Origin: Burkholderia multivorans ATCC BAA-247
GTDB taxonomy: Bacteria > Pseudomonadota > Gammaproteobacteria > Burkholderiales > Burkholderiaceae
Length of the DNA stretch: 64,000 bases
Direction of reading: 5' to 3'
Assembly: GCF_000959525.1 (NCBI RefSeq)
Contig: NZ_CP009831.1
Location: forward strand, 1,674,001 to 1,738,000
Part shown: piece by piece, positions 42,210-61,671 of the stretch
How positions within the stretch are numbered: position 1 is the first letter of the stretch
Layout of the letters: each line of letters starts with the position of its first letter
The notes under the pieces: generated by a model
Databases searched by the model: none
The model's input: only the letters and a program-made list of their open reading frames with translations
Told to the model about the DNA's origin: nothing
Made by a program: the position numbers and the translations under genes

Positions 42210-43514
42210 TTATCGTGCGACGTCGATCTCGACACGGCGGTTTTGCGCGCGGCCCTGCGCGGTGCGGTTGTCGCCGACCGGATCGGAATCGCCCTTGCCA
42301 ACGGCTTCCAGGCGGTTCGCCGGTACGCCGGCGGCTTGCAGCATCTGCATGACCTGGGTGGCCCGCTCTTCCGACAGCGCCTGATTCGACGCGAACTGGC
42401 GGCTGCGAATCGGCACGTTGTCCGTGTAGCCGACGATCGTGACCTTGCCGGGAACCTTGGCGATCTCTGCCGCGATCTTCGCGATCAGCGGATTCATCGA
42501 GGCCTGGACCGAGGCGCCACCGGGCCGGAACATCGCGTCGCCGCGGAACGTGACGACGCTGCGGCGAGCGTCCTCGTCGACGCTGACCGTGCCGGCGGCG
42601 ATTTCATCCTTGAGCAACTGCTTGAGGTGCAGTTGCGGCGGCGGCGCAGGCGGCGGCGTCATGCGGGCAATGTCGGCAATCTGCTTCTGAACGTCCGCGC
42701 TGTGATTGGAGAGTTCGTACTTGAACCATCCGAACAGGCCGAGCAGGACCACCGACAAAAGCGTTGCGGTAATCCACACGGGGAAATCGTGGAACGACGG
42801 GCGCCTGCCCTTTGTGCCGGGTTGCCAGTGGGGCGACAAAGTCAGCGGCACGGGGTCGCGTTGCGATGTGATGACGTTGTAGAGCCTCTGGCGAATCGCA
42901 TCGTGCTTGCGCGTGCCGTCGGCTCCGCCGCGGTAGCGCCCTTCGAAGCCGAGACTGAGCGTCCGATAAATCACTTCGAGCAGGTCTCGATGCTCGTGCG
43001 GATCTTCGAGTAGACGTCCGATCAGCAGGTAGACCTTGTCGCCTCCGGCGAGATCGCCGTGGAACGTCGTGGCCAGCCCGCCTTTGATCCATGCAATCCC
43101 CGCCGATCCGGCTTTGCCCCAGGCGGTTTGCGTGGCCGTCTCGTCCAGCGCCGTGCACAGGCAATATCGGGCGCCGATCATATGATCGCGACGGATGTTG
43201 GCCTGCTCGCATAGCTTCTCGAATGTCCGAACCTCCTGCTCGAGAAGCGCGCGTAACGACGCGACCGCATTCTTCGACGCGAATTTCTCCGGCATGTCGG
43301 CCTGTGCGCGCAGCAGGACGCGCGATGCCTCGAGCAATGGATTTGATGCCGCCTTCACCTGGATCAGGCGCTGCTCAAAAGCCTCCGGAGGTGCCATGTC
43401 CTCGCTAGTCGACGCATCGTCTTCCCGGTTGAGCGCAGTAGCCAGCGTCTCCGGCTCGTCCAGCGACGTGTGCAAGGAATCGATCGGTGCGCTGGATTTC
43501 CTTGGAGTCGACAT
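42210..43514 (-). CDS. tssL: T6SS protein TssL (DotU domain plus OmpA domain)
   Basis: The 434-residue protein has a DotU domain (about 55-255; NPLLEASRVLLRAQADMP, GARYCLCTALDETATQTAWG, LLEVIYRTLSLGFEGRYRGG), one transmembrane helix (WITATLLSVVLLGLFGWF) and an OmpA domain ending in VTIVGYTDNVPIRSRQFASN and GRAQNRRVEIDVAR. It is probably the main TssL because it precedes tssM. The start at 43514 lies 3 bp from the PAAR stop. Its 5' three-fifths is nearly duplicated at 51690-52450. Confidence 0.92.
   Translation of the reverse strand: MSTPRKSSAPIDSLHTSLDEPETLATALNREDDASTSEDMAPPEAFEQRLIQVKAASNPLLEASRVLLRAQADMPEKFASKNAVASLRALLEQEVRTFEKLCEQANIRRDHMIGARYCLCTALDETATQTAWGKAGSAGIAWIKGGLATTFHGDLAGGDKVYLLIGRLLEDPHEHRDLLEVIYRTLSLGFEGRYRGGADGTRKHDAIRQRLYNVITSQRDPVPLTLSPHWQPGTKGRRPSFHDFPVWITATLLSVVLLGLFGWFKYELSNHSADVQKQIADIARMTPPPAPPPQLHLKQLLKDEIAAGTVSVDEDARRSVVTFRGDAMFRPGGASVQASMNPLIAKIAAEIAKVPGKVTIVGYTDNVPIRSRQFASNQALSEERATQVMQMLQAAGVPANRLEAVGKGDSDPVGDNRTAQGRAQNRRVEIDVAR
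42604..43363 (-). repeat. tssL direct repeat, copy 1
   Basis: About 0.76 kb of tssL coding DNA (DotU domain, transmembrane helix, Pro-rich linker) is nearly identical to 51694-52451, in the same orientation and about 9.1 kb away. Boundaries are approximate, from eye alignment. Confidence 0.8.
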
Positions 43515-43516
43515 GA

Positions 43517-43822: not shown

Positions 43823-46198
43823 TCAAAAGCGCGGAAACGTGCTGAAGTCGACTTTCACCGGCGGCGGCAATCTTCCGGACTGCTCGGCGAGGTAGTTGCC
43901 GCGATCCGCCGCCGCTACCCTGGCACGCTCGGCGGCAATGTGCGCGGCATCGTTCTTCAGGCCGAGCGACCGAACGCGCCTGTCGTTGCCGACGAAGAAC
44001 GTCCGCGCCCAGCCGTAGCCACCCGGTGCATATTCATGGAAATAGGGCACGCGGAACCATGCGCGGCTATCGTGTACGAAATCGTCGAGCAAACGGATCA
44101 CGGCACGAGGCAGCTTTCGCACCGCTGCCTCAGACGTGTGCTCGAGCAGGAACGGCAGCATTTCCTGGGGCGGCGCGAGAACATAATCCAGGACTGGTTG
44201 ATACGGGGCCAGGGCACCAAGCAGCTGCAGCACGCGATCATGTCCTCCCATCCAGACAGCCGTCGACCCTTGCCGACGGCGCATGGCAACGTCCTTCCGT
44301 TCAACCGTCAAGTAATAGGCATTGACGTCCTGTTCCAACGCAAACGGCCCGCTGGCCCTTCCCATCTTCACGTTCAACTTTTCCGCCGGCGGGTGAGCCC
44401 AGTACACCTGCCAGCGCCAGCGCTGATCGGGATACAGGTATGCCAGCAAGAGTCGGAACTCCTCCGCGGCTTCGAGCAGGTCGGTCTTGTCGTTGGTCGT
44501 TATGTCCGTCGTACCCTCGCCGGGCCGCGGCGGTTTGCCTGCTGCAGCCGCCATGATCTCGGCGTCCTTCTTCTTGATCTGTTCACCAAGTTCGGCCGCG
44601 CTTTTCCTGAAGGGATTCGCCAGTGCTGGAATCGCAAGCATGCTGAGCGCAGCGGCCTCGAGGCCCGCCCTTTTTTTCTCGAGCTCGCTCTTCTCGCGCT
44701 TCAGATTATCAAGCCGAGAATTCGATGCTGCCTTGCTCGCGACTCGCGTCTCGAGTCCGTAGGGCGTGACCTCATCCTCTGGCGCATGACGGAAGAAGGG
44801 CTGCGACGTCACGTAGGCTTGCGGATTTCCATAGTCGGCCCGCAAGGTACGCCATGCGAGCGACTGGCCCATGCCTATGCGAAGTGCCGATTCGATGCTG
44901 TCGAGGGGTTTTTGATTGACGGTTGAGAGCCAGTCGTTGAAGGCGCGGGCGACGGATGACGAGATTCTGAAATCATCTTCCATGACTTTCGGAAGCGGTG
45001 ATTCCTCGGCCTGCACAGATAATGGCACGCCGGCTTTCAATGCTTCGATATACATGTTGTGCAAGGTGATCTGACTAAGCTTGCTACCGTCACCGTCTCG
45101 AGATTTGCCCTCTTCATTGAACGCGTAACCGCCGCCCACGTCCGAATGCACACCCGGGTAAGCGACCTCAATTCTGCGCGGCGCGCCGACAGGATAGGCA
45201 TGCCGCTCGCGAATGGAATCGAGCGGGAAGCTCATCCGCTGTTCGTGAATCGAGAAGAAATGCACACACTTCTTCACCGAAGCGGGAATATTAAGGGCAC
45301 CGTTAGCGGTCCATACCCAATGCCCGTCCAGATCTGCGATATCGATTGCCGCAGTGACGGTATCCGGCAACCCAACCGACGCGACTGTATCGAAAATTCC
45401 GAGAAAATTGACCTCGTACGGAATCGCACCCGCGATCATGCCACCCGGTGCCCAGGTATTGAGGAGACGGTTAACGAATACGCGTGCGCCTGCCGCACCG
45501 CGCGAGAATCCGAATACGTTCACCCATACCTTTTTGATCGAACGATTCAACTGACCACCCGGTCCGCCATGCTTCTTCTGCAGGGCGAACAGTGCCCCGT
45601 GAAGACGCTCCAGCTGCGCCCGCGATTTGTATCCGTAGTACGCCTGCGACGCCGTTACTACAGGACTCGCCATGGGGAACGCCTTGGACGCCGCTCCAAC
45701 AATTTGAGGCAGCTTGCCGTTCGAGGCCGTGACGTCAGTGTCAATCAACGAGCAAAGAGCACGGGCCTCTGGGTCATCCAGCAATCGACTTCCCGTCATA
45801 GCGATGTGCAGAGCGTTTAACAAGCGGGTATATCCCCATGCAACGCGCATACCGAAACCAAGGGCGAATGCCTTGCCTTCAGATGTGAAAACCATTTCGC
45901 CAATTTCATAAAACGGTGTACCAACACCAGGAACGTACTCGGAGAAAATTCCTGCCTCTTTTTTTTGTGGGCAAGCACGAAACAATCTCGCGACATTACT
46001 ATGCGTCGGCCGGTCCAAATTCTTGGCATCCCATTCCCGATTGTTATTCGTACCGTCGAAAAACAGATTAACGTGGAGCACCAGCCGGCAGTCCGATGGT
46101 TCCCCCGCTAGCGCGCTCTTGCCCATCGCTCCGGCCGCTTCGCCCTCGTCCAGACGCCCCTGTTCGTTGAATGGCTCAGGCCATCGAATGACGCTCAT
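43823..46198 (-). CDS. DUF2235 T6SS phospholipase effector, Tle1-like (cassette A)
   Basis: The 791-residue alpha/beta hydrolase has LFFDGTNNN at about 47-55, the nucleophile elbow VFGFSRGAAGARVFVN (Ser near 231), FDTVASVGLPDT with the probable catalytic Asp, and YPGVHSDVGGGYAFNEEG with the probable catalytic His. These are the Tle1 signatures; Tle1 proteins hydrolyse membrane phospholipids of rival cells. A helix-rich segment (about 485-560) and a C-terminal half without a recognised domain follow. Its start overlaps the immunity gene 3' end by 23 bp, and a DUF4123 adaptor, VgrG and PAAR lie in the same cassette. Confidence 0.9.
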   Translation of the reverse strand: MSVIRWPEPFNEQGRLDEGEAAGAMGKSALAGEPSDCRLVLHVNLFFDGTNNNREWDAKNLDRPTHSNVARLFRACPQKKEAGIFSEYVPGVGTPFYEIGEMVFTSEGKAFALGFGMRVAWGYTRLLNALHIAMTGSRLLDDPEARALCSLIDTDVTASNGKLPQIVGAASKAFPMASPVVTASQAYYGYKSRAQLERLHGALFALQKKHGGPGGQLNRSIKKVWVNVFGFSRGAAGARVFVNRLLNTWAPGGMIAGAIPYEVNFLGIFDTVASVGLPDTVTAAIDIADLDGHWVWTANGALNIPASVKKCVHFFSIHEQRMSFPLDSIRERHAYPVGAPRRIEVAYPGVHSDVGGGYAFNEEGKSRDGDGSKLSQITLHNMYIEALKAGVPLSVQAEESPLPKVMEDDFRISSSVARAFNDWLSTVNQKPLDSIESALRIGMGQSLAWRTLRADYGNPQAYVTSQPFFRHAPEDEVTPYGLETRVASKAASNSRLDNLKREKSELEKKRAGLEAAALSMLAIPALANPFRKSAAELGEQIKKKDAEIMAAAAGKPPRPGEGTTDITTNDKTDLLEAAEEFRLLLAYLYPDQRWRWQVYWAHPPAEKLNVKMGRASGPFALEQDVNAYYLTVERKDVAMRRRQGSTAVWMGGHDRVLQLLGALAPYQPVLDYVLAPPQEMLPFLLEHTSEAAVRKLPRAVIRLLDDFVHDSRAWFRVPYFHEYAPGGYGWARTFFVGNDRRVRSLGLKNDAAHIAAERARVAAADRGNYLAEQSGRLPPPVKVDFSTFPRF

Positions 46199-46727
46199 CG
46201 TCCTCGCCTCGTTTCTTGTTCAATTCCGGATCGAGTACACCATGTACGATGTATGGATCGTTATCCGCGGGTTTCTTTGCCATTGCCGGTTTGTCCTCAA
46301 TCTCCACACGAATTCGGTCTCCGGGCAGGAAATGCACCACGAAACCGTAAGTCCGCGGCCCATACGGCGGCACCTCGGTGGTCGCCGTGTACCAAGTACC
46401 AAGATGCTTTCCATCCAACACTTTGTCGACATTCCACTTGACGACCAGCTTCATGTTTGGACGCCAGCGGGCGGGTATACCGATACAGCACGATCCACCG
46501 CTTTCCGAGCGGAGCTTTCCTGTCTCCTTCGGCAAAATATTTGAACCACCCGCCGACATTTCGTGCCCCTCGCCCGCGATCAGAAATTGATCAATGTAAT
46601 AGTCGGTGTAGTTGTATCCGCTGACGCTCGACGGATTCCTTTCATTCGAATCCGAGCAACCGATCATCGTTAGCAACAGCGAACCGATAAGCAAGAGAAG
46701 GAAATATCTCCGAACAGTGATGTTCAT
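46176..46727 (-). CDS. DUF3304 lipoprotein, probable Tle1 immunity protein (A1)
   Basis: The 183-residue lipoprotein has a lipobox at MIGC (Cys24), then SGYNYTDYYIDQFLI, GGSCCIGIPARWRPNMKLVV and VVHFLPGDRIRVEIED, the DUF3304 pattern. Periplasmic lipoproteins next to Tle1 genes commonly neutralise the cognate lipase. Overlaps the effector start. It is the copy directly linked to an intact effector, and two further copies follow upstream. Confidence 0.85.
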   Translation of the reverse strand: MNITVRRYFLLLLIGSLLLTMIGCSDSNERNPSSVSGYNYTDYYIDQFLIAGEGHEMSAGGSNILPKETGKLRSESGGSCCIGIPARWRPNMKLVVKWNVDKVLDGKHLGTWYTATTEVPPYGPRTYGFVVHFLPGDRIRVEIEDKPAMAKKPADNDPYIVHGVLDPELNKKRGEDDERHSMA

Positions 46728-46748
46728 CTCAAATAAATCTCCTTTTAT

Positions 46749-47589: not shown

Positions 47590-48128
47590 CGCCCTCTCCT
47601 CGTTTCTTGTTCAATTCCGGGGTCCAGTACGCCCTGTACGATATAGGGATCGTCATCGTCGATTTCCGGAAGAATTCCTCTCTCATCCCTGATCTGGATT
47701 CGAATCCGATCGCCCGACAGAAAATGCACCACAAAGCCCGCTGTGCGTGGTCCATACGGCGGCACCTCGGTGGTCGCAGTAAGCCATTGATCACCGCTGC
47801 GATCTTTGTCGTAGGGTTTCGTGTCCCGCCGCCATTTGATCACGAGCTTCATGCCCGGATGCCAATGGGCAGGAATGCTGACACAGCACACGAATCCCCC
47901 TCCTCCCGAACGCATCTGACCGTCCTTTTTAGGAAAAATATTCGGCCCACCCGCGGGGAACTCGTCGCCTTCACTCCCGACGCGGAATCCCGTGATGTAA
48001 TAGTCGGTATAGTTGTAACCGCTCAGTTCTGACGGGTTACTCTCGTTTTCGTCCGAGCAACCAAGAATCGTTGCCAGAGAGAAAACAATTGAAAGACCGG
48101 CAAAGCGTTTCAAAACGAGCACGATCAT
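47586..48128 (-). CDS. DUF3304 lipoprotein, probable immunity paralog (A3)
   Basis: The 180-residue lipoprotein (lipobox ATILGC, Cys24) has SGYNYTDYYITGFRVGSEG, CCVSIPAHWHPGMKLVIKWR and FVVHFLSGDRIRIQI. It is the most divergent of the three cassette-A copies. Start overlaps the DUF4123 stop by 4 bp (ATGA). It ends next to an effector relic. Confidence 0.85.
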   Translation of the reverse strand: MIVLVLKRFAGLSIVFSLATILGCSDENESNPSELSGYNYTDYYITGFRVGSEGDEFPAGGPNIFPKKDGQMRSGGGGFVCCVSIPAHWHPGMKLVIKWRRDTKPYDKDRSGDQWLTATTEVPPYGPRTAGFVVHFLSGDRIRIQIRDERGILPEIDDDDPYIVQGVLDPGIEQETRRGR

Positions 48129-49009
48129 CTTTCATCCTCCTGTCCATCTGGAGGCTTCGCTCGACTGCCGACATCACGCATCAAATCTCGCCAGATATAT
48201 GCGGGAACCAGCTCAAACGCTTGCAGCAACGACGCCTCGTCGGCAACAGCCAATCGGATTGCCGATCGAATATCACCCTGCCGGTCGAACGCCTCGCCAT
48301 ACTGATACGAGGCCACGCAGAATGCGTGACGGTCTGCCCGAAGAGTCAGCCCCCATTGAATCGCGCGATCATATCGGCGAAGAAAATCCCGGTACCTGAT
48401 GGCATATGGCTGATTTGCATCGATCAAGCCAAGGTCGCTCAACTCGCTCATGAGCGCATGCGGCTCGTCGTGCTTTTCCAACGCATCGAGTTGCCGCTGA
48501 TCGAGTGACAGCGAAAACTGCCCTACATGGTCGCCGTGCGAATGGTCGTCAATAGCGAGGTACTGCCACTCCGAGTTCGCACCGCGGTACATCCATGTGG
48601 TTATCGGGTGCATGAGTTCAATGCTCGCTGCTTTGCCGAAGACATCCACAATCGACGGAAGCGAGCGTGGATCGAACCAGCGAAGCAGAACCTGCATGCC
48701 TTCGCCGATGTCCGCAAAAAGAAAGCGTTGAAAATGAATCTTGAGCCCATCGATATCGAGCGCACTGCGCATCACCGTGAAGCATGGTCGATACCGATCC
48801 ATCAGATCGACATGACGAACCCATTCACTATGCGCGTCGTCGATCTCGAAAAGAATCGGCGCCGCGTGCCCGGCCTCCTCCTCAGGCAACCCTTCAAATA
48901 GCGACCGCACCTCCGGCGAAAACTCGAGCACCCATGTAGCAAGCGCCTCCGGGTACTGCGCCCCATCGGCCAGTCCGTAGAGTTTTCCGTTGTCGTCTGC
49001 TGTTTTCAT
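48125..49009 (-). CDS. DUF4123 T6SS effector adaptor/chaperone (cassette A)
   Basis: The 294-residue protein has the DUF4123 N-terminal part (YGLADGAQYPEAL, SLFEGLPEEEAGHAAPILFE, HFQRFLFADIGEGMQVLLRW, FDPRSL) and a helical C-terminal part. DUF4123 (Tap/Tec) proteins load a toxin onto its VgrG and are encoded between the two, as here. The ATG at 49009 lies 10 bp after the vgrG stop. Same length as the paralog at 52919-53803. Confidence 0.88.
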   Translation of the reverse strand: MKTADDNGKLYGLADGAQYPEALATWVLEFSPEVRSLFEGLPEEEAGHAAPILFEIDDAHSEWVRHVDLMDRYRPCFTVMRSALDIDGLKIHFQRFLFADIGEGMQVLLRWFDPRSLPSIVDVFGKAASIELMHPITTWMYRGANSEWQYLAIDDHSHGDHVGQFSLSLDQRQLDALEKHDEPHALMSELSDLGLIDANQPYAIRYRDFLRRYDRAIQWGLTLRADRHAFCVASYQYGEAFDRQGDIRSAIRLAVADEASLLQAFELVPAYIWRDLMRDVGSRAKPPDGQEDER

Positions 49010-49019
49010 ACGACCAGTC

Positions 49020-51551
49020 TCAAAGCCGCGGCACAATCGATGCACCGCTCTTCGCAGCTTTCAGCAGACATTCGATGCATACCTTGGGAACGTGAAGCTC
49101 AACGGGTACTTCGTCGGGTTTCGGGAAATAGTGGGTCGCTGCATGTGCCACCCAGACACCGCTGGTGCCGCTTTTGATGCTGCCCTGCTCAAGCTCGATA
49201 TAGCTTCCGCCACCGTTGAGAACCAGTTTCTTCCGGGCCTTGATATGGATCGTGTCGCTGGTGACGTTGATCTCGAGTAGAGCCAGCAGATTGATCGCTT
49301 TCTGCAGTGCGTGTATGTCGATATCGCCATCCGCCGCGACGGACTTCATGCCTCCACGCGCTGCAAAATGACGCACCGAGTCCTGAGCGCTGACGAGGAC
49401 GCTCTCGCTCGCCGATGCCGCAATGTGTGCCCCGCTCGTCAACGCGACGTGCTGACCGCTCGCGATATGCGTTGTCGCGGGGGTGGTGGTCTGGATACCG
49501 GCCGCGCCGGCAATGACGACGTGCGGCGCACCCAGTTCGGGAAAAACGTCGTCGGCGCGGCTTTGAGGTCCGCGTACGGCGGCGTTCTGTTTGGCCAGCG
49601 CCTCGGCGACTTCTTCCTGATGGGCGTTCGTGTCTTGCGCCGTGGCCTGTTGCGCAAGTTGAGCAATCGTCGACTGCCAACGCGCGGCCTCCTCCAACCG
49701 TGCAGTCGTTTCGCTCATGTCGGTCATATGGGCTTGCGCATTCGGACGTGTTTCCGTTGTAAGCAGCATCCCTCGTCCCGCACGAAACACGCCGTGGCCG
49801 TCCGTCCGCAGCTCCACCCCGCGCCCCCGCTCCTCCTGCCGCCCGGCATTCCCCGCAATACGCGTGATGTACCCCAGATTCAACTGCGAACACCCTTCAT
49901 CGCTCGACAGATGCGTCTGGATCTTGCCGTTCGTATCGTCGAAAGCCAGCGTATTCGCTCGACGGCCGCCGATTTCCTTGCTGCGATAGCCGGCGAGCGC
50001 CTGATTCGCCGGCAAGGCGAACGGCGGCATGTTGAATGCGTTCACCGCGCTTCCCACGACGATCGGCAAGTCCGGATCGCCATTGACGAAGGCAACCTCG
50101 ACCTCCTGCCCCCGACGCGGAAGAAAAACGCCGCCGAACTGATCGCCGTGCCACGCGCCGGCAACGCGCACCCAACAACTGGAACGCTCGTCGTTCTTGC
50201 CGAGCCGGTCCCAGAGAAACTGCAGCTTCACGCGCCCGTAGGCATCGGTCCAGATTTCCTGGTTGTCGGGACACGTCACGACGGCATACTCGACGCCGTT
50301 CATCCGCGGCTTCGCAATCGTGCGCAATAGACGAAACGGCTCATTGGTCGGCTGCACCGTGAACTGCGCTTCGCACCGATACTGCTGACCGGCCCCGGAA
50401 GCTTCGCCGATCTCTTCGATCGTCAGCCGGCAAGCAATCACGGCATACTCGCGATTCGCCGCCTCTTGCGGGTAGTGCGAGAGCACGAACGTCTGCCCGG
50501 CGACCATGCCGCGCAAATTGCCCTTGCCGTGTGCCCTCAATCCCTGACACCGCCACGCCTGCATCTGCACCAGCGTGAGGTATTCCGCTTCGGTGCGCGG
50601 CTCGTTGTGCGCGCCGGAGAGTCCGGCCGCACCCGCTTGCGGCTGTGCATAGTCACCCCACGAATAGCGCTCCTGATGGGCGAGGCCCGTATCGCGAGGA
50701 TCTTCGCGCGTCACGGTCAGATTCGCGCGCGGCAACGTGTAGTCGTAGTCGACAGCCGTCACCGCGCCCGTCGTCAGCGCATGTGACACCGAGAATTCGT
50801 GGATATGTTCCTCGTCGATGCGCCGATTGTTCGGCGGTTCGTAGCGAAGCTCGGCATAGGCGTCGCCGAGCGGCTGGAGCGCGCCCATCGAATCGCAAAG
50901 TACGAGCCGATGCTTGCCTTCGCCGTGCTCGAAGAAGTAGTAGATGCCCCACTCTTCCCACAACCGTTGCAGGAACGTCCAGTCGCTTTCGAAATGCTGG
51001 CGCTGAATGTCGCGCTTGGGCCATACCTTGTTCGGCCGAGGCGTCGTCAGCCGTTTATCCACCGGAAACGGATAGACCGACAGCACGGCGTCCGTGATCT
51101 CGACAACCGACATGTCCTGGAAAATGCGGCAGTCGCTATTCTTGGTCGCATGCCAGAGCCACGGTCGCAGCGTCAGCGCATAGACGATCGATCGGCCGTC
51201 TTCGCGAACGATCATCGCCTGACTGACAATGCCGGTGATCTCGCGCATGCCTGCGCCGATATTTCCCATTCCGGCACCACCGGCAAGGCCCGGAATGAAA
51301 TGCCCACGGCCCTCGAGCTGAATCGATACGGTCACTTCCGTGCCGATCAACGCATCGAGATCGACGTTCGCCGCGATGCTCGGCGAGAACGCGAGCGCGT
51401 CCGGCGTCTTCAGTTCCAGGACGTATTCGAACAACTCGCCTATCGTCTCGCCGCCCGTGAGCCTCACCGGCGTCAGGAGCGATTGGCCACCGTACGTCGG
51501 CAACGCCGCGCCGGAAACCGATAGCGTCCGTGATGCGTCAAACAAAGCCAT
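49020..51551 (-). CDS. vgrG: VgrG spike protein (cassette A)
   Basis: The 843-residue VgrG has a gp27-like part (from ~20; LLTPVRLTGGETIGELFEYV, ESDWTFLQRLWEEWGIYYFF), a gp5-like OB domain (DAYGRVKLQFLWDRLG, WVRVAGAWHGDQFGGVFLPR, GQEVEVAFVNGDPDLPIVVG) and a DUF2345 C-terminal extension after about residue 600. Residues 1-575 are nearly identical to the VgrG at 59031-61553, but the C-terminal extension is different. The extension is likely to select cassette-specific cargo. Confidence 0.95.
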   Translation of the reverse strand: MALFDASRTLSVSGAALPTYGGQSLLTPVRLTGGETIGELFEYVLELKTPDALAFSPSIAANVDLDALIGTEVTVSIQLEGRGHFIPGLAGGAGMGNIGAGMREITGIVSQAMIVREDGRSIVYALTLRPWLWHATKNSDCRIFQDMSVVEITDAVLSVYPFPVDKRLTTPRPNKVWPKRDIQRQHFESDWTFLQRLWEEWGIYYFFEHGEGKHRLVLCDSMGALQPLGDAYAELRYEPPNNRRIDEEHIHEFSVSHALTTGAVTAVDYDYTLPRANLTVTREDPRDTGLAHQERYSWGDYAQPQAGAAGLSGAHNEPRTEAEYLTLVQMQAWRCQGLRAHGKGNLRGMVAGQTFVLSHYPQEAANREYAVIACRLTIEEIGEASGAGQQYRCEAQFTVQPTNEPFRLLRTIAKPRMNGVEYAVVTCPDNQEIWTDAYGRVKLQFLWDRLGKNDERSSCWVRVAGAWHGDQFGGVFLPRRGQEVEVAFVNGDPDLPIVVGSAVNAFNMPPFALPANQALAGYRSKEIGGRRANTLAFDDTNGKIQTHLSSDEGCSQLNLGYITRIAGNAGRQEERGRGVELRTDGHGVFRAGRGMLLTTETRPNAQAHMTDMSETTARLEEAARWQSTIAQLAQQATAQDTNAHQEEVAEALAKQNAAVRGPQSRADDVFPELGAPHVVIAGAAGIQTTTPATTHIASGQHVALTSGAHIAASASESVLVSAQDSVRHFAARGGMKSVAADGDIDIHALQKAINLLALLEINVTSDTIHIKARKKLVLNGGGSYIELEQGSIKSGTSGVWVAHAATHYFPKPDEVPVELHVPKVCIECLLKAAKSGASIVPRL

Positions 51552-51669
51552 TCCGATATCTCCGTCGAATCACCGATTAGCGACTGCGTCCGGCCCGTTC
51601 GTGCCCAGTCGCTTACGCACGGACACCCCAAAGTTCCAGCTTGAGCGACGGAAACTCTCCCGCCACATG
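49820..51669 (-). repeat. vgrG 5'/tssK 3' direct repeat, copy 1
   Basis: About 1.85 kb, covering the vgrG codons for residues 1 to ~575 plus 118 bp upstream, is almost identical to 59822-61671 (offset 10,002 bp, same orientation). In the second copy the upstream part includes the true 3' end of tssK; here it is joined to a tssL fragment. Edges are from eye alignment. Confidence 0.85.
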
Positions 51670-52622
51670 CCGCTCACCGTGCCGACTGCGACTTCATCCT
51701 TGAGCAACTGCTTGAGGTGCAGTTGCGGCGGCGGCGCCGGCGGCGGCGTCATGCGGGCGACGTCGGCAATCTGCTTCCGAACGTCCGCGCTCTGACTGGA
51801 GAGTTCGTACTTGAACCATCCGAATAGGCCGAGCAGGACCACCGACAAGAGCGTTGCGGTAATCCACAGGGGGAAATCGTAGAACGACGGGCGCTTGCCC
51901 TTTGTGCTCGGTTGCCAGTGCGGAGACAACGTCAACGGCACGGAGTCGCGTTGCGATGTGATGACGTTGTAGAGCCTCTGGCGAATCGCGTCGTGCTTGC
52001 GCTTGCCGTCGGCACCGCCGCGGTAGCGCCCTTCGAAGCCGAGACTGAGCGTCCGATAAATCACTTCGAGCAGGTCTCGATGCTCGTGCGGATCTTCGAG
52101 TAAACGTCCGATCAGCAGGTAGACCTTGTCGCCTCCGTCGAGATCGCCGTGGAACGTCGTGGCCAGCCCGCCTTTGATCCATGCGATCCCCGCCGATCCG
52201 GCTTTGCCCCAGGCGGTTTGCGTGACCGTCTCGTCCAGCGCCGTGCACAGGCAATATCGGGCGCCGATCATATGGTCGCGCCGGATGTTGGCCTGCTCGC
52301 ATAGCTTCTCGAATGTCCGAACCTCCTGCTCGAGAAGCGCGCGCAACGACGCGACCGCATTCTTCGACGCGAACTTCTCCGGCATGTCGGCCTGTGCGCG
52401 CAGCAGGACGCGCGATGCTTCGAGCAATGGATTTGACGCCGCCTTCACGGAGGCGAGTCGTTCGGCAAACGACTCGGGCGGCGGCATCTCCTTCGACGGC
52501 GCCGAGTGGCTCGCAGAGTTTTCGATCGCCGCTTTTACGCTTGCGGACGATGTCGATTCACGGGCATGGACCGCGTCCTCATCCAAGACCGCGGACTCCA
52601 CGGTTCCTCTCACTTTTGCCAT
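51570..52622 (-). CDS. truncated tssL paralog lacking the OmpA domain
   Basis: The 350-residue frame keeps the DotU domain and transmembrane helix (WITATLLSVVLLGLFGWF), nearly identical to the tssL at 42210, up to LLKDEVAVGTVS. The last ~33 residues, from GMWRESFRRSSWNF, are an out-of-frame reading of copied tssK 3' DNA. The OmpA domain is gone. The N-terminal ~55 residues are unrelated to those of the intact tssL. It could be a DotU-only protein or non-functional. Confidence 0.8.
   Translation of the reverse strand: MAKVRGTVESAVLDEDAVHARESTSSASVKAAIENSASHSAPSKEMPPPESFAERLASVKAASNPLLEASRVLLRAQADMPEKFASKNAVASLRALLEQEVRTFEKLCEQANIRRDHMIGARYCLCTALDETVTQTAWGKAGSAGIAWIKGGLATTFHGDLDGGDKVYLLIGRLLEDPHEHRDLLEVIYRTLSLGFEGRYRGGADGKRKHDAIRQRLYNVITSQRDSVPLTLSPHWQPSTKGKRPSFYDFPLWITATLLSVVLLGLFGWFKYELSSQSADVRKQIADVARMTPPPAPPPQLHLKQLLKDEVAVGTVSGMWRESFRRSSWNFGVSVRKRLGTNGPDAVANR
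51694..52451 (-). repeat. tssL direct repeat, copy 2
   Basis: Partner of 42604-43363. Similarity begins a few tens of bases past the junction with tssK-derived DNA (near 51669) and ends in the codons for VKAASNPLLEASR. Confidence 0.8.
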
Positions 52623-53870: not shown

Positions 53871-56096
53871 TCAAGCAATCGCCGCTTCTGCTCCGTCAAA
53901 CTCTCGGAGCGCGACCGCGAGCGGATCCTGGCCAAGCCATGACAGGCGTTCCTTGCCGACAAAGACCACGCGCGGCCATCCGTATCCGCCCGGCGCGTAT
54001 TCGTGGAAATACGGCACGCGGAACCAGCACCGGCTGTCGTGGACGTAGTCGTCGAACAGTTTGACTGCGGCTTGGGGTAGCGAACTGAGCGCGTGCATCG
54101 ATGTGTGCTTCTTCAGAAACGATTCCACTTCCGCGACGGGCTTCGGCAACACGTCGTCAGCAACGTTGTACGTTTGCATCAAGGAAGTACGCGTCGCATG
54201 AAACTTGATCGCGCCGACGTCTACCAACGACATTCGCGGCGAATCGACGTCGGAAGCATCGTCGAGCGGGGGTGCGTGTCGCACCGAGAGAATCCGCTTC
54301 GGTTGCGCATCCCCGTCATGGCTCGGCGGTATAACGGTCGCGTCGGATACGTCGACTGAAAGATCGGTACGCTGTTCAGGGTGAAGATGCGCCAATAGCA
54401 AACGCATTTCCTCCGCGCCCTGGAGCAGATCCGTTTTGTCGTTGGCCGTGATATCGCCTTCCCCTTCTCCTGGGCGGCCCGACCGCGGACGCTTGTCCTG
54501 AGCGACGTCGGCGTAGGCAATCTCCGCGTAGATCTCTTCCAGCCGGCTCCGGATCTCGAGGTCTACGGCATCAAGTTCTTTCTGGGCGGCATCGATCGCA
54601 GGAATATGCTGCGGATACGGTCGACTTGTTTTCGCATGCCACAACTTTGCCAATGCCTTATTGCGCTTGGCATTCAACTCCCGAAGGCGCGCATCATTCG
54701 GTTTGGCCTTCTCGACCGCCTGCGTCATCTTGCGCGGCGTCAGCCGATCTTCTCGCGCGCGCTTGTAAAAGCCCTGGTTCGTGACATAAGAGCCCTTCGT
54801 GAACTGTGCCCGCAATGCACGCCAGCTCAGCATCTGAGACATACCGAAGGACATGGCTTCCTCGACGCTACTGATCGGGCTGGTTGTTTTCAGCCAGGCA
54901 TTGAAGGCTGCGATGGTGTCGGCGTGGAGTTTGAAATCCTCGGCCAAATAGTCAATTGCGAGAATATCGCTCGCCTTCATCATCGGCACGCCGTACCGAA
55001 GGGCTGCGATATACATGTCGTGCAGCGCAATCTGGCTGAGCTTTCTTTCGTCCATTCCGTTTCCGGACTCATCGCAGCCCTTGCCCTGGTCGCCCGGTCC
55101 ATATCCACCACCCACGTCCGAATGCACGCCCGGATATGCGATCTCTCGACGCACCTCACCGCCGGTGTAACCGCCACCCTGCCGAATGGAGTCAAGCGGA
55201 AAACTCATGCGTTGCTCGTGAATCGAGAACGCGTGGACGCAACTGCGAACCCAGTCGGGAATCGCCAGACCATCATCGCTGGCGAAATGCGCATGTCCAT
55301 CGAGGAGGTCCAGATTCAACGCGGTACGAAAAGAATCTGGCAATCCTACGGATGCAACCGTGTCAAACAGGCCCATGAAGTTCACCTGATAGGGCAACGT
55401 TGGACCGTGCTCCGGCTTCCCCAGCATGCCGCTCGGCGCCCATTCGTTCACGAGTTTGTTCACGAACGCTCGCGCCGCAGCCGCGCCACGGGAAAAACCG
55501 ATCGCGTTGATCCAGATCTTCTTGATCGTGTTTTCCGTTTTTGCGTTGGCATGTGCGACTTGGAGTATTTTCAGTCGATCATCGAAGTGCAGGTCGAACG
55601 TGGTTTTGTCGCAGAAAGCGCCGATGTTGCTCAGTTGTTTTGCGTCATCGTCAGGAATTAGCTCCCATCGCGAATCTTCCAGAATTGCGCCGTAGACTGA
55701 ATTGAGTACGCGCGTGTACGCCCATACGCATCTTTGATTGAATCCTTTCGCAAGCGCCTTACCGTCTTGAGAATACGTGCCTTCACCAATTTTCTCGAAA
55801 GGCGTGCCAACACCCGCGATGTAGTATTTATATATACCGTCATTGGGCTCAAAAATCGCCGCCTTGTACAGTCGTGCGACGTTTGTATGACACCAGGTGT
55901 TGGAGTCTCTCCACCTCGGATTATCTTCGTCATCGTTGTTGTTCGTACCGTCAAAGAACAACGAAATATGCAAACTCCGTTGACACGACATCACCGAACC
56001 CGCGACATGGCAATACCCCGTCACCCACGCATCGTCCGCTTCGTGGTTCGTCAACCGCCCGCCTTCCGACATCGGTTCCGGCCATTTCAGGTTCAT
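53871..56096 (-). CDS. DUF2235 T6SS phospholipase effector, Tle1-like (cassette B)
   Basis: The 741-residue paralog of the cassette-A effector has SLFFDGTNNNDDED in variant form (HISLFFDGTNNN), the nucleophile elbow AIGFSRGAAAARAFVNKL (Ser near 201), FDTVASVGLPDSF and AYPGVHSDVGGGYGPGDQG. All triad candidates are kept. Sequence outside the catalytic core differs strongly from cassette A, suggesting separate immunity specificities. Its start overlaps the stop of DUF3304 copy B1 by one base (TAATG). Confidence 0.9.
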   Translation of the reverse strand: MNLKWPEPMSEGGRLTNHEADDAWVTGYCHVAGSVMSCQRSLHISLFFDGTNNNDDEDNPRWRDSNTWCHTNVARLYKAAIFEPNDGIYKYYIAGVGTPFEKIGEGTYSQDGKALAKGFNQRCVWAYTRVLNSVYGAILEDSRWELIPDDDAKQLSNIGAFCDKTTFDLHFDDRLKILQVAHANAKTENTIKKIWINAIGFSRGAAAARAFVNKLVNEWAPSGMLGKPEHGPTLPYQVNFMGLFDTVASVGLPDSFRTALNLDLLDGHAHFASDDGLAIPDWVRSCVHAFSIHEQRMSFPLDSIRQGGGYTGGEVRREIAYPGVHSDVGGGYGPGDQGKGCDESGNGMDERKLSQIALHDMYIAALRYGVPMMKASDILAIDYLAEDFKLHADTIAAFNAWLKTTSPISSVEEAMSFGMSQMLSWRALRAQFTKGSYVTNQGFYKRAREDRLTPRKMTQAVEKAKPNDARLRELNAKRNKALAKLWHAKTSRPYPQHIPAIDAAQKELDAVDLEIRSRLEEIYAEIAYADVAQDKRPRSGRPGEGEGDITANDKTDLLQGAEEMRLLLAHLHPEQRTDLSVDVSDATVIPPSHDGDAQPKRILSVRHAPPLDDASDVDSPRMSLVDVGAIKFHATRTSLMQTYNVADDVLPKPVAEVESFLKKHTSMHALSSLPQAAVKLFDDYVHDSRCWFRVPYFHEYAPGGYGWPRVVFVGKERLSWLGQDPLAVALREFDGAEAAIA

Positions 56097-56715: not shown

Positions 56716-56832
56716 TCATCGAGCAGGAATAACTGCTTCTTTCGCGGGCACGACATCGTGGATTGATCGCAATGTCGCTTGTGTGTGCCGTTTAAGTGGC
56801 CACGCTCTCTCCAACGTTCCATCCACGTTCAT
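56716..56832 (-). pseudogene. short coupled frame, possible effector 5' relic
   Basis: An ATG at 56832 overlaps the stop of copy B2 in the same TAATG arrangement as the real effector start at 56096. The 38-codon frame starts MNVDGTLERAW. A near-copy of the DNA at 58184-58306 shifts frame, so protein coding is unlikely. Similarity to the effector N-terminus is weak. Confidence 0.4.
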
Positions 56833-57431: not shown

Positions 57432-57567
57432 TCGCATTCCAAATCATTACCCCCTGAAGCTAACAAGAAACGTCGAAACATATCATGCCTACTGCAAGCT
57501 TTAATATCCGGTTTTCAAAACACCTTTCGAGCAACTGCTTTCCGGCATCGATACCGCACGCTTACGT

Positions 57568-58161
57568 TCATTTCTTCGATCCGCGGTAACGATACAAGCG
57601 ATTCCATTCCTCATCGAGCGTACCCTGTACGACGTATGGATCGCTAGCCGCCGGTGGTCCTGCATTGCGTGCAAGATCGCGCGCGTTCGGGTTACCGACT
57701 ACGAGCTTGACGCGATCACCAGGCAAGAAAATCGCCCATACCCCCGACGTCTGACCGGTGATATATGGCTCAAGTCGAACATTGTCGGCCTTATACCAAT
57801 AACCCGGAGTTTTGCCGTCCATCTTCTTGTCGACCTTCCATCGCACCGTCAACCTCAGGTCAGGCTGCCATTCTCTGGGGTAGCGCGTACAGCATTGGCC
57901 TCCGGAATGCCCTGGATAACCGTCCTCTTCCATCGGCCACATGTTCCCACCTCCACCACCGATTCTTGTTCCGTTCGGCCCAGAAATCGAGAATGTGTGG
58001 ATGTACCACGGCGTATAGTTCATCGAACGCGAGTCACCACTGCTCAGGTCGACTCTCTTCGGCGTCTCGACCGTAGGCAACTCATCGGCATGCAGGCCAG
58101 CGCATCCCGCGAGAAGCACCAGCAACACCGCCACCACACCACTAAATCGATTCGTTTTCAT
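57568..58161 (-). CDS. DUF3304-like lipoprotein, probable immunity paralog (B3)
   Basis: The 197-residue paralog (Cys20 lipobox LLAGC) has YTPWYIHTFSISGPNGTRIG, CCTRYPREWQPDLRLTVRWK and WAIFLPGDRVKLVVGNPNAR. The C-terminus diverges (GTLDEEWNRLYRYRGSKK instead of YEYPKGVMRRIK). Its stop overlaps an ATGAACGT sequence like the effector start context. Confidence 0.82.
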   Translation of the reverse strand: MKTNRFSGVVAVLLVLLAGCAGLHADELPTVETPKRVDLSSGDSRSMNYTPWYIHTFSISGPNGTRIGGGGGNMWPMEEDGYPGHSGGQCCTRYPREWQPDLRLTVRWKVDKKMDGKTPGYWYKADNVRLEPYITGQTSGVWAIFLPGDRVKLVVGNPNARDLARNAGPPAASDPYVVQGTLDEEWNRLYRYRGSKK

Positions 58162-58183
58162 TCATCAACCTTGTATATATTGT

Positions 58184-58306
58184 TCAAACCGTCAACAAGC
58201 AGGAATAACCGCTTCTTTCGCGGGAACGGCATCGTGGATTGATCGCAATGTCGCTTGTGTACCGTTTAAGTGTCCACGCTCTCTCCAACGTTCCATCCAC
58301 GTTCAT
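58184..58306 (-). pseudogene. short coupled frame, possible effector 5' relic (second)
   Basis: Starts at an ATG overlapping the stop of copy B4 (TAATG) and reads MNVDGTLERAWTLKRYTSD before diverging. It is a DNA near-copy of 56716-56832 with small indels that change the frame, which indicates non-coding relics duplicated with the immunity genes. Confidence 0.4.
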
Positions 58307-58899
58307 TATTTAATCCTCCGCATCACGCCCTTCGGATACTCATAATTCCATTCTTCGTCGGGAGCGCCCTGCACCACATACGGATCGCTAGCTGCTGGTG
58401 GTCCGGCGTTGGGTGCAAGATCAGATGCATTGGGATTTCCAACTACAACCTTCACGCGATCTCCTGGGAGAAAAATCGCCCACACACCCGCTGTCTGACC
58501 AGTGATATATGGTTCAATTCGAACATTCTCGGCCTTGTACCAACCCGACGTCTTCTTGTTCTTTTTGTCGACCAACCACCGCACCGTCAACCGGAGGTCA
58601 GGCTGCCATTCTCTGGGGTAACGCGTACAGCATTGGCCTCCCGAATGCCCTGGATAACCGTCCTCTTCCATCGGCGACATGTTCCCACCTCCACCACCGA
58701 TTCTTGTTCCCTTCGGCCCAGAAATCGAGAATGTGTGGATGTACCACGGCGTATAATTCATCGAACGTGAATCACCGCTATTCAGCTCGACTGTCTTCGG
58801 CATCTCGACCGTAGACGACTCATCGGCATGCAAACCAGCGCATCCCGCGACAAACACCAGCAGAACCACAAGAACCCCACTCAATCGATTTGCTGTCAT
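58306..58899 (-). CDS. DUF3304-like lipoprotein, probable immunity paralog (B4)
   Basis: The 197-residue paralog (Cys20 lipobox FVAGC) has nearly the same mature sequence as B1 (YTPWYIHTFSISGPKGTRIG, WAIFLPGDRVKVVVGNPNAS, ending EYPKGVMRRIK). It is the first of the array after vgrG. It differs from B1 mainly in the signal peptide and a few residues in the Gly-rich loop. Confidence 0.82.
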   Translation of the reverse strand: MTANRLSGVLVVLLVFVAGCAGLHADESSTVEMPKTVELNSGDSRSMNYTPWYIHTFSISGPKGTRIGGGGGNMSPMEEDGYPGHSGGQCCTRYPREWQPDLRLTVRWLVDKKNKKTSGWYKAENVRIEPYITGQTAGVWAIFLPGDRVKVVVGNPNASDLAPNAGPPAASDPYVVQGAPDEEWNYEYPKGVMRRIK

Positions 58900-59030: not shown

Positions 59031-61553
59031 CTATCTCAATACAAGTGCCGTCCCACTTCGCGCTGCCTTCATCAAGCATTCGATACAAATCTTCTTCGGA
59101 GCGAGATCGACTGCCTGGCTCAAAGGCCCCGGAAGCTGGTGAAACGACGCATGGGCAAGAAATTTTCCGGACGTGCCGTGCACGATTCCCGACGCATCCA
59201 TATTCGTGAAACTACCGTTGACCTCGAAACGGATTTTTCGCTTCCCGCGCAAGATGATTTCGTCTGCCTCGAGAAGGATCTGCTTCTGCGCACGCGCAAC
59301 GATCGATTGCGTCAACGCGTGAAGCACGATATCGCCGGCCGCTGAAACAAATTTCACGATCCCCTTTTGGGCGACAAAACGGATGGTGTCGCGTATGCTC
59401 GCGAAAAAACTGCTACCGCTCGCGATCCCGATATGCCCCTCGCTGGTCACGGCGACCTGTTGCGCAGCGACGTGCGCGGTGGCGGGCGTAACGAGTTGAA
59501 CGCCCGCCTTGCCGGCAATCACGAGATGCGGCTCGGCCAATTCGGCAAACGGATTCGCCTCGCTTGCTCGGCCGCGAATCTGTTCGTTCTGTCGGGAAAT
59601 CGCTTTGGCCACATCCGACTGGTGCCCGTCGACATCCTGCGCCTCCGCCTCCTGAGCCGCCTTGCTCATGAAGTCGTGAAGCCTATGGGCGTCGTCGAGT
59701 TGGGACAGCGTCTCGGACATGCTCTTTACTTGCCCATCCGCTCCCGGCCTACCTTGGGTGGTAATCAGCATTCCCATCGCCGATCGCACTACCCCCCACA
59801 AACCCGTTGCAAGCTCAAAGCCTCGACCCCGCTCCTCCTGCCGCCCCGCATTCCCCGCAATACGCGTGATGTACCCCAGATTCAACTGCGAACACCCTTC
59901 ATCGCTCGACAGATGCGCCTGGATCTTGCCGTTCGTATCGTCGAAAGCCAGCGTATTCGCCCGACGGCCGCCGATTTCCTTGCTTCGGTAGCCGGCGAGC
60001 GCCTGATTCGCCGGCAACGCGAACGGCGGCATGTTGAATGCGTTCACCGCGCTTCCCACGACGATCGGCAAGTCCGGATCGCCATTGACGAAGGCAACCT
60101 CGACCTCCTGCCCCCGACGCGGAAGAAAAACGCCGCCGAACTGATCGCCGTGCCACGCGCCGGCAACGCGCACCCAACAACTGGAACGCTCGTCGTTCCT
60201 GCCGAGCCGATCCCAGAGAAACTGCAGCTTCACGCGCCCGTAGGCATCGGTCCAGATTTCCTGGTTGTCGGGACACGTCACGACGGCATACTCGACGCCG
60301 TTCATCCGCGGCTTCGCAATCGTGCGCAATAGACGAAACGGCTCATTGGTCGGTTGCACGGTGAAATCCGCTTCGCACCGATACTGCTGACCGGCCCCGG
60401 AAGCTTCGCCGATCTCTTCGATCGTCAGCCGGCAAGCAATCACGGCATACTCGCGATTCGCCGCCTCTTGCGGGTAGTGCGACAGCACGAACGTCTGCCC
60501 GGTGACCATGCCGCGCAAATTGCCCTTGCCGTGGGCCCTCAATCCCTGACACCGCCACGCCTGCATCTGCACCAGCGTGAGGTATTCCGCTTCGGTGCGC
60601 GGCTCGTTGTGCGCGCCGGAGAGTCCGGCCGCACCCGCTTGCGGCTGTGCATAGTCACCCCACGAATAGCGCTCCTGATGGGCGAGGCCCGTATCGCGAG
60701 GATCTTCGCGCGTCACGGTCAGATTCGCGCGCGGCAACGTGTAGTCGTAGTCGACAGCCGTCACCGCGCCCGTCGTCAGCGCATGTGACACCGAGAATTC
60801 GTGGATATGTTCCTCGTCGATGTGCCGACTGGTCGGCGGTTCGTAGCGAAGCTCGGCATAGGCGTCGCCGAGCGGCTGGAGCGCGCCCATCGAATCGCAA
60901 AGTACGAGCCGATGCTTGCCTTCGCCGTGCTCGAAGAAGTAGTAGATGCCCCACTCTTCCCACAAACGCTGCAGGAACATCCAGTCGCTTTCGAAATGCT
61001 GGCGCTGAATGTCGCGCTTGGGCCATACCTTGTTCGGCCGAGGCGTCGTCAGCCGTTTATCCACCGGAAACGGATAGACCGACAGCACGGCGTCCGTGAT
61101 CTCGACAACCGACATGTCCTGGAAAATGCGGCAGTCGCTATTCTTGGTCGCATGCCAGAGCCACGGTCGCAGCGTCAGCGCATAGACGATCGATCGGCCG
61201 TCTTCGCGAACGATCATCGCCTGACTGACAATGCCGGTGATCTCGCGCATGCCTGCGCCGATATTTCCCATTCCGGCACCACCGGCAAGGCCCGGAATGA
61301 AATGCCCACGGCCCTCGAGCTGAATCGATACGGTCACCTCCGTGCCGATCAACGCATCGAGATCGACGTTCGCCGCGATGCTCGGCGAGAACGCGAGCGC
61401 GTCCGGCGTCTTCAGTTCCAGGACGTATTCGAACAACTCGCCTATCGTCTCGCCGCCCGTGAGCCTCACCGGCGTCAGGAGCGATTGGCCACCGTACGTC
61501 GGCAACGCCGCGCCGGAAACCGATAGCGTCCGTGATGCGTCAAACAAAGCCAT
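59031..61553 (-). CDS. vgrG: VgrG spike protein (cassette B)
   Basis: The 840-residue VgrG has the same gp27/gp5-like body as the VgrG at 49020, nearly identical over residues 1-575. Beyond this it carries its own DUF2345 extension (GFELATGLWGVVRSAMGMLI, VTSEGHIGIASGSSFFASIR, LEADEIILRGKRKIRFEVNG). It starts about 60 bp after the tssK stop. It probably represents the ancestral position after tssK from which the other copy arose. Confidence 0.95.
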   Translation of the reverse strand: MALFDASRTLSVSGAALPTYGGQSLLTPVRLTGGETIGELFEYVLELKTPDALAFSPSIAANVDLDALIGTEVTVSIQLEGRGHFIPGLAGGAGMGNIGAGMREITGIVSQAMIVREDGRSIVYALTLRPWLWHATKNSDCRIFQDMSVVEITDAVLSVYPFPVDKRLTTPRPNKVWPKRDIQRQHFESDWMFLQRLWEEWGIYYFFEHGEGKHRLVLCDSMGALQPLGDAYAELRYEPPTSRHIDEEHIHEFSVSHALTTGAVTAVDYDYTLPRANLTVTREDPRDTGLAHQERYSWGDYAQPQAGAAGLSGAHNEPRTEAEYLTLVQMQAWRCQGLRAHGKGNLRGMVTGQTFVLSHYPQEAANREYAVIACRLTIEEIGEASGAGQQYRCEADFTVQPTNEPFRLLRTIAKPRMNGVEYAVVTCPDNQEIWTDAYGRVKLQFLWDRLGRNDERSSCWVRVAGAWHGDQFGGVFLPRRGQEVEVAFVNGDPDLPIVVGSAVNAFNMPPFALPANQALAGYRSKEIGGRRANTLAFDDTNGKIQAHLSSDEGCSQLNLGYITRIAGNAGRQEERGRGFELATGLWGVVRSAMGMLITTQGRPGADGQVKSMSETLSQLDDAHRLHDFMSKAAQEAEAQDVDGHQSDVAKAISRQNEQIRGRASEANPFAELAEPHLVIAGKAGVQLVTPATAHVAAQQVAVTSEGHIGIASGSSFFASIRDTIRFVAQKGIVKFVSAAGDIVLHALTQSIVARAQKQILLEADEIILRGKRKIRFEVNGSFTNMDASGIVHGTSGKFLAHASFHQLPGPLSQAVDLAPKKICIECLMKAARSGTALVLR

Positions 61554-61671
61554 TCCGATATCTCCGTCGAATCACCGATTAGCGACTGCGTCCGGCCCAT
61601 TCGTGCCCAGTCGCTTACGCACGTACACCCCAAAGTTCCAGCTTGAGCGACGGAAACTCCCCCGCCACATG
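59822..61671 (-). repeat. vgrG 5'/tssK 3' direct repeat, copy 2
   Basis: Partner of 49820-51669. Here the repeat continues into the last ~18 codons of intact tssK, so this is the likely donor copy. Confidence 0.85.

What the first reader, a model, noticed from the sequence alone, without database searches (positions are those of the whole stretch)
42210..61671. Two paralogous effector cassettes inserted between tssK and tssL, each flanked by duplicated operon parts
Seen: on the minus strand tssK is followed by cassette B (vgrG, four DUF3304, DUF2235, DUF4123, PAAR, truncated tssL) and cassette A (vgrG, DUF4123, three DUF3304, DUF2235, PAAR, intact tssL), then tssM. The vgrG/tssK repeats (49820-51669 and 59822-61671) and the tssL repeats (42604-43363 and 51694-52451) lie in direct orientation. 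Known: Tle1-type lipases and DUF4123 adaptors travel with VgrG. Inference: recombination between the vgrG repeats would delete cassette B, and between the tssL repeats cassette A. Either event would leave an intact tssK-vgrG-effector-tssL-tssM operon. This is a built-in cassette exchange system within a structural operon.
Basis: partly seen in the sequence, partly recalled or inferred. Interest (0 to 1): 0.82.

Follow-up and report, generated by a model that had tools for sequence, protein, structure and literature searches.

The report
Two toxin cassettes sharing one slot
A Burkholderia type VI secretion operon has a slot between two structural genes where close relatives carry one interchangeable toxin cassette or none; this genome carries two different cassettes in tandem, separated by broken copies of those structural genes, which looks like an evolutionary swap that was never completed.

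Summary
Minus-strand order: tssK, cassette B, truncated tssL, 58-bp tssK scrap, cassette A, intact tssL, tssM. Direct repeats are V (1,861 bp, 98.4%) and L (778 bp, 95.5%). They meet at a joint (51671/51670) found as one piece only here, 1 of 65 genus genomes.

Of 20 genus genomes (this one included) with a close tssK (88% or more) and tssL on one contig, 17 carry one cassette, 2 none, 1 two. A B. multivorans strain has B alone; B. pseudomultivorans has A. Five cassette types use the slot.

Best reading: an effector slot exchanged by recombination in the vgrG core (or just before vgrG) and in tssL; one illegitimate tssL'|tssK' joint left two cassettes as a tandem merodiploid. Swapping near vgrG and duplicated vgrG islands are in print for other genera. 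New here: the position, the duplicated structural-gene parts, and an ectopic second case with operon scraps. New variant of a known kind.

The parts
61615..62961 (-). tssK (T6SS_VasE), left border of the slot
   Evidence: Pfam PF05936, E 6e-137; 97.3% DNA identity to B. multivorans L033 over 1,289 nt
59812..61672 (-). repeat V, copy B: last 58 bp of tssK (stop included), 61-bp spacer, first 1,742 nt of vgrG_B
   Evidence: self-blastn 98.4% over 1,861 bp; 97.0% to L033; recount
59031..61553 (-). vgrG_B (840 aa); cassette-specific tail 59031-59811
   Evidence: Pfam Phage_GPD, T6SS_Vgr, DUF2345; tail 95.9% to L033
56096..58899 (-). cassette B immunity array: four DUF3304 genes (58306-58899, 57568-58161, 56832-57437, 56096-56686)
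   Evidence: Pfam PF11745 in 4 of 4; VAGC/LAGC lipobox-like motif in 4 of 4
53871..56096 (-). tle1_B, Tle1-like phospholipase effector, GFSRG motif at residue 200
   Evidence: Pfam PF09994, E 2e-29; motif; 95.2% DNA identity to L033
52919..53962 (-). DUF4123 adaptor gene of cassette B
   Evidence: Pfam PF13503
52626..52922 (-). PAAR gene of cassette B
   Evidence: Pfam PF05488
51570..52622 (-). tssL': truncated tssL, whole DotU domain, no OmpA match, frame runs over the joint
   Evidence: Pfam PF09850 only; sequence
51671..52448 (-). repeat L, copy B
   Evidence: self-blastn 95.5% over 778 bp
51670..51671 (-). joint tssL'|tssK'; no clear microhomology by eye
   Evidence: sequence; 181-bp probe over the joint matched as one piece in 1 of 65 genus genomes and 1 of 150 family genomes, this one both times; 32-base pattern 0 hits in viral contigs
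49810..51670 (-). repeat V, copy A: 58-bp tssK scrap, spacer, vgrG_A core
   Evidence: self-blastn
49020..51551 (-). vgrG_A (843 aa); tail 49020-49809 is 98.2% identical to B. pseudomultivorans L034
   Evidence: Pfam
48125..49045 (-). DUF4123 adaptor gene of cassette A
   Evidence: Pfam PF13503
46176..48128 (-). cassette A immunity array: three DUF3304 genes (47586-48128, 46886-47425, 46176-46727); the two gaps between them begin like the 5' end of tle1
   Evidence: Pfam PF11745 in 3 of 3; gaps
43823..46198 (-). tle1_A, Tle1-like phospholipase effector, GFSRG motif at residue 230
   Evidence: Pfam PF09994, E 3e-30; motif; 93.6% DNA identity to L035
43517..43798 (-). PAAR gene of cassette A
   Evidence: Pfam PF05488
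42210..43679 (-). intact tssL (DotU + OmpA); the 489-aa frame starts inside the PAAR gene, so the true start is probably further in
   Evidence: Pfam PF09850 and PF00691
42581..43358 (-). repeat L, copy A
   Evidence: self-blastn; 97.9% to L033
38087..42184 (-). tssM, continuation of the structural operon after the slot
   Evidence: Pfam PF14331, PF06761, PF06744; 98.4% to L033

Best explanation
The gap between tssK and tssL is an effector slot. In most Burkholderia genomes with a close copy of this T6SS it holds one cassette (vgrG, adaptor, toxin, immunity genes, PAAR), exchanged between strains by homologous recombination with one edge in the shared vgrG core (or just before vgrG) and the other in tssL (edges shown by comparison; the exchange itself inferred). 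In this genome one event joined tssL to the end of tssK by illegitimate recombination instead of completing a replacement, so two cassettes lie in tandem with a truncated tssL and a tssK scrap between them (anatomy shown; route inferred). Either a B-type segment was duplicated and one copy was later swapped to A through the vgrG core, or a fragment with one cassette was inserted next to the other by one homologous anchor and one illegitimate joint. The strain should deliver two Tle1-type phospholipases on two VgrG-PAAR spikes, each with its own adaptor and immunity set (inferred from open, full-length genes). The state should be able to collapse to A alone or B alone by general homologous crossing over (inferred).
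For: Repeats and abutting joint. Single-cassette loci: B in L033, A in L034/L035; of 20 genus genomes, this one included, 17 single, 2 empty, 1 double. A 181-bp joint probe matches as one piece in 1 of 65 genus genomes; the other 20 with a match fit one side of the joint at a time. Five cassette types in the same slot: A, B, VasX-type, PLD-type, reprolysin-like. On a tssK+tssM tree the four nearest rows are AB, B, A and X; 11 type changes on 21 tips against a shuffled mean of 12.3, 284 of 2000 shuffles as low, so type is hardly tied to backbone descent. Against the window's B copy, loci of types A, X and P lose similarity at the same tile of vgrG; window against L036: tssL 5' tiles 57-90%, then 97-99% into tssM. 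V_A and V_B share 17 two-state sites against L033 and L034. G012 holds a second cassette elsewhere with a tssK scrap, a tssL and a tssM scrap; its vgrG core is 99.2% identical over 1,867 bp to the main-slot copy.
Against: Only one genome shows the tandem state, and only two strains of this species were available. The order of events is not resolved: L_B's first 400 nt are 99.0% to L033 but its last 378 nt are 93.4% to both L033 and L_A, with no near match among the loci held. L_B does not look clearly decayed (10 synonymous, 9 nonsynonymous private changes, p 0.008 against neutral; in its last 378 nt alone 7 and 9, p 0.08), so much of its divergence may predate the joint, or it may still be used. 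Expression and secretion are unknown. V is 1.9 kb, so a short-read assembly could misorder the cassettes; the joint itself would remain.
Confidence: 0.75

Rival explanations
1. A built-in exchange system: the repeats are kept by selection so that the population can switch between A, B and AB.
For: Both deletion products would be intact operons. The vgrG cores of the two copies stay 98.4% alike; in G012 the main and ectopic cores are 99.2% alike with 7 of 15 differences in the last 240 of 1,867 bp, next to the cassette edge, which fits continuing gene conversion.
Against: The joint was found as one piece in 1 of 65 genus genomes. No recombinase family was matched in the cassette and operon proteins scanned. 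The L copies have drifted to 95.5%.
Confidence: 0.1
2. An old internal tandem duplication whose two cassettes simply diverged in place.
For: Abutting direct repeats are the classic form of a tandem duplication.
Against: Gene order differs between A and B. Immunity arrays aside, A is 93.6-98.2% identical to B. pseudomultivorans L034/L035 and B is 95.2-96.6% identical to B. multivorans L033 piece by piece. The DUF3304 proteins fall on two sides of a well supported branch, one for A loci and one for B loci.
Confidence: 0.05
3. Assembly artefact: A and B are variants of a mixed culture, or lie in different places.
For: V (1.9 kb) is longer than short reads; the sequencing method is not known to me.
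Against: The two V copies differ at 30 sites. The joint is a short junction that matches as one piece in no other of 65 genus genomes. The genome is 3 contigs, listed as 100% complete and 0.03% contaminated.
Confidence: 0.05

Closest known systems
Effector swapping in Pseudomonas aeruginosa T6SS islands (PMC11751169, passages seen)
   Same: A dominant breakpoint at the 3' end of vgrG; homology-facilitated illegitimate recombination; the authors infer that some vgrG islands arose by duplication, followed by effector swapping.
   Different: In the passages seen the swapped unit is an effector gene beside vgrG; here the swap and the double lie inside the structural operon and take pieces of tssK and tssL along.
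Sequential displacement of effector-immunity modules in Vibrio cholerae (PMC5361080, passages seen)
   Same: One homologous anchor plus one illegitimate end; leftover genes mark past events.
   Different: There the displaced effector is lost and immunity genes remain; here the whole second module survives with vgrG, adaptor, toxin and PAAR.
vgrG loci of agrobacteria (PMC8546570, passages seen)
   Same: Recombination hot spot inside vgrG, after the conserved part; adaptor, effector and immunity genes move together.
   Different: Accessory loci and the 3' end of the hcp operon rather than the tssK-tssL gap; no tandem double with structural-gene scraps in the passages seen.
Tle1/Tli1 module of P. 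aeruginosa (PMC13133936, passages seen)
   Same: vgrG, DUF4123 adaptor, Tle1 and DUF3304 lipoprotein immunity genes in one island.
   Different: Two immunity genes there; three and four here (seven in L033), in two families tied to two cassette types.

Membership tests
Tle1-type T6SS effector module | Tle1-like catalytic domain with GxSxG motif | tested here: met
   PF09994 in both, GFSRG at 200 and 230
Tle1-type T6SS effector module | vgrG, DUF4123 adaptor, PAAR and DUF3304 immunity genes linked | tested here: met
   Pfam, both cassettes
Tle1-type T6SS effector module | toxic lipase activity, neutralised by the DUF3304 proteins | not testable with these tools
   needs assays; DUF3304 as Tle1 immunity is from PMC13133936
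Homology-facilitated illegitimate recombination product | one end joined without homology | tested here: met
   joint at 51671/51670, no clear microhomology by eye
Homology-facilitated illegitimate recombination product | other end anchored in shared sequence | tested here: inconclusive
   V and L are both shared sequence next to the cassettes, but which served as anchor is not resolved
Homology-facilitated illegitimate recombination product | identifiable donor for the inserted piece | tested here: inconclusive
   B is nearest to L033, A nearest to L034/L035; L_B 3' half has no near match
Tandem duplication (merodiploid) | direct repeats abutting at a novel joint | tested here: met
Tandem duplication (merodiploid) | the two units are copies of one another throughout | tested here: not met
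   outside V and L only three short stretches are alike between the units; so a duplication with one unit swapped, or an insertion
Dedicated cassette-exchange system (integron-like or invertase-like) | recombinase gene in or beside the cassettes | tested here: not met
   no such Pfam match among 20 cassette and operon proteins
Dedicated cassette-exchange system (integron-like or invertase-like) | specific recombination site at the cassette edges | not tested
   no separate site search was made; the edges seen lie inside vgrG and tssL coding sequence

The most novel reading that the evidence does not exclude
The double locus is a selected, lasting double-armed state: two Tle1 spikes in one operon, vgrG cores kept alike by gene conversion, the short TssL' (DotU plus membrane segment, no OmpA domain) still made and used, and subpopulations carrying A alone or B alone arising by recombination over V or L.
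Probability: 0.15. Interest if true: 0.65.

Novelty: new variant of a known kind. Interest (0 to 1): 0.48.

Why it matters
In the papers whose passages I saw, T6SS effector swapping is inferred by comparing strains before and after. Here one genome seems to hold an in-between state, with both cassettes, both candidate homologous anchors and the illegitimate joint visible. That makes the steps testable: which anchor is used, how stable the double is, and whether carrying two toxins helps. It also suggests that the 5' part of a core structural gene (tssL) travels with the toxin cassette, and that stray copies of operon edges (G012) can seed extra modules elsewhere in a genome.

Tried and rejected
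Simple in-place divergence of one duplicated cassette: rejected because each cassette has close single-cassette relatives elsewhere. Donor of L_B: no near match to its last 378 nt among the loci held. Reading L033 as a collapse product of an AB ancestor: its tssL is nearer L_B in the first 400 nt (L_B 99.0%, L_A 98.0%) and nearer L_A in the last 378 (L_A 97.9%, L_B 93.4%), which fits, but an ordinary B locus with an odd L_B fits as well; left open. L_B as a decaying pseudogene: 19 private changes, 3 in the first 400 nt and 16 in the last 378, 10 synonymous and 9 not; p 0.008 against neutral over the whole, 0.08 for the last 378 nt. Descent test of cassette type on the backbone: 11 changes, shuffled mean 12.3, 284 of 2000 as low, so clustering by descent is weak at most. 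Promoter and terminator scan: 2 promoter-like and 15 terminator-like sites, fewer than the shuffle means of 7.5 and 18.4; no use. Joint in viral contigs: none.

Literature: searches, of an open-access library only. In their listings and in the passages read I saw no report of two cassettes between tssK and tssL; one search found no paper, and one search listed one review holding 'truncated tssL', which I did not open. No paper was read in full; passages only, of PMC5361080, PMC8546570, PMC13133936, PMC5813230, PMC11751169 and PMC9711863.

The species name rests on 98.4% tssM identity and 96.2% over the matched 42% of window 1-25000 to one B. multivorans record; it could be a very near species.
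Full report
WHAT IS THERE. Pfam scans name the genes as claimed. Self-comparison of the window gives two pairs of direct repeats: V, 49810-51670 and 59812-61672, 1,861 bp, 98.4%, and L, 42581-43358 and 51671-52448, 778 bp, 95.5%, both without gaps. V starts 58 bp before the end of tssK (stop included) and ends at nt 1,742 of vgrG, where the two VgrG proteins become cassette-specific. L covers the DotU and membrane part of tssL. L copy B ends at 51671 and V copy A begins at 51670; at that joint I see, by eye, no clear shared bases between the tssL and tssK sides. A 181-bp probe over the joint matches as one piece in 1 of 65 genus genomes, this one; 20 others match one side of it at a time, or both sides in separate places. 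A draw of 150 family genomes gave the same, 1 of 150.

CASSETTES. Cassette B: vgrG, four DUF3304, Tle1, DUF4123, PAAR. Cassette A: vgrG, DUF4123, three DUF3304, Tle1, PAAR. Both Tle1 proteins keep a GFSRG motif. DUF3304 proteins are described as Tle1 immunity proteins (PMC13133936, passages). The truncated tssL' keeps its whole DotU domain and, by eye, a hydrophobic stretch, and has no OmpA match.

RELATIVES. The slot was followed in 65 genomes of the genus. In 20 of them, this one included, a close tssK (88-100%) and a tssL lie on one contig: 17 have one cassette (gap 7.3-8.7 kb), 2 have tssK next to tssL (about 0.1 kb), and this genome has two (17.9 kb) (distances; contents). Nine further loci with tssK at 66-78% have tssL directly beside it. 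A B. multivorans strain outside that set (NZ_CP143551, L033) has cassette B alone, with seven DUF3304 genes. B. pseudomultivorans has cassette A, cut by contig ends in the immunity array (L034/L035). Other genomes hold a VasX-type cassette (L036, L044), a PLD-type one with Sel1/DUF6396 proteins (L041, L045), or one with a weak reprolysin-like match (L042, L047; L049 put with them by layout only). Of 12 loci whose record titles name other genera, 10 have the empty slot and 2 (Paraburkholderia phenoliruptrix, Bordetella sp.) have a vgrG there, so an empty slot may be ancestral; this is inference.

EXCHANGE. On a tree of tssK plus tssM the four nearest rows are AB, B, A and X. Cassette type changes 11 times on 21 tips, close to shuffled labels (mean 12.3; 284 of 2000 as low). 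Against the window's B copy, loci of types A, X and P lose DNA similarity at the same tile of vgrG; type R loci lose it already around the vgrG start while tssK is shared; B-type loci fall less or not at all. On the other side, window against L036 shows 57-75% in the 5' part of tssL, 90% in the next tile and then 97-99% through tssL and into tssM. So the exchanged tract seems to run from the vgrG core (or, for R, from about its start) into tssL. Breakpoints in or at the end of vgrG are reported in agrobacteria and P. aeruginosa (PMC8546570, PMC11751169; passages).

HISTORY OF THE DOUBLE. V_A and V_B are nearer each other (30 differences) than to L033 (66 and 56) and share 17 two-state sites against L033 and L034. 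The tssK-vgrG spacer is 61 bp in both copies and in L033, but 466-478 bp in L034, L036, L037 and L038. So cassette A sits here behind a B. multivorans-type vgrG start, while its vgrG tail is 98.2% identical to B. pseudomultivorans. The short spacer may be a trait of the species rather than of cassette B, so this does not say which cassette came first. L_B is a mosaic: 99.0% to L033 in its first 400 nt, 93.4% in its last 378. I infer at least one illegitimate joint and at least one exchange inside vgrG; their order is open.

A SECOND CASE. Genome G012 has a B cassette in the main slot and, about 0.85 Mb away, a PLD-type cassette bordered by a tssK scrap on one side and by a tssL and a tssM scrap on the other; the two vgrG cores with their tssK ends are 99.2% identical over 1,867 bp. 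Genes near it match CoA-transferase, chemotaxis-receptor and MgtC families. G040 has a further DUF4123-PAAR-tssL set beside porin and folate-enzyme genes. Operon edges thus travel with cassettes more than once.

VERDICT. The find is real and well described. It is best read as a tandem merodiploid at an effector slot, a caught intermediate, rather than a purpose-built exchange device. Swapping at vgrG, illegitimate joints and duplicated vgrG islands are in print; the position inside the structural operon and the duplicated tssK and tssL parts are what I found no report of in the searches named under Tried and rejected.

Noticed in passing
46728-46885 and 47426-47585 (cassette A); also L034, L037, L038 (A type) and L040, L052 (B type): Between DUF3304 genes lie stubs that begin like the 5' end of tle1, as if each immunity gene once stood before a toxin gene that was lost, or the unit was duplicated with a breakpoint in tle1.
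   Followed up: partly
L033 20063-25089 against window 56096-58899: The immunity array of cassette B has seven DUF3304 genes in one strain and four in the other; copies of the two strains are partly intermixed in a tree.
   Followed up: partly
36850-38067: A second DotU-OmpA gene follows tssM in this genome and in the single-cassette relatives L033 and L035-L052, so the operon normally has two tssL-like genes.
   Followed up: no
L057 (G012): Ectopic PLD-type cassette with tssK and tssM scraps and a tssL; vgrG core 99.2% identical to the main-slot copy.
   Followed up: partly
L058 (G012): A third tssL-like gene near a vgrG and a gene with an M23 peptidase match.
   Followed up: no
L053 (G025): PLD-type effector, PAAR, tssL and tssM present, but no tssK at E 1e-60 in the genome and no vgrG match in the stretch fetched; looks like a decayed or rearranged operon.
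   Followed up: no
1803-2927 and 7130-8397: Two paralogous AraC-type regulator genes with Cupin_6 domains, with neighbouring DNA, 83% identical, in direct orientation about 5.4 kb apart.
   Followed up: no
36548-36688: Short tandem repeats whose self-hits step by 6 bases, in a low-complexity stretch next to the T6SS operon.
   Followed up: no
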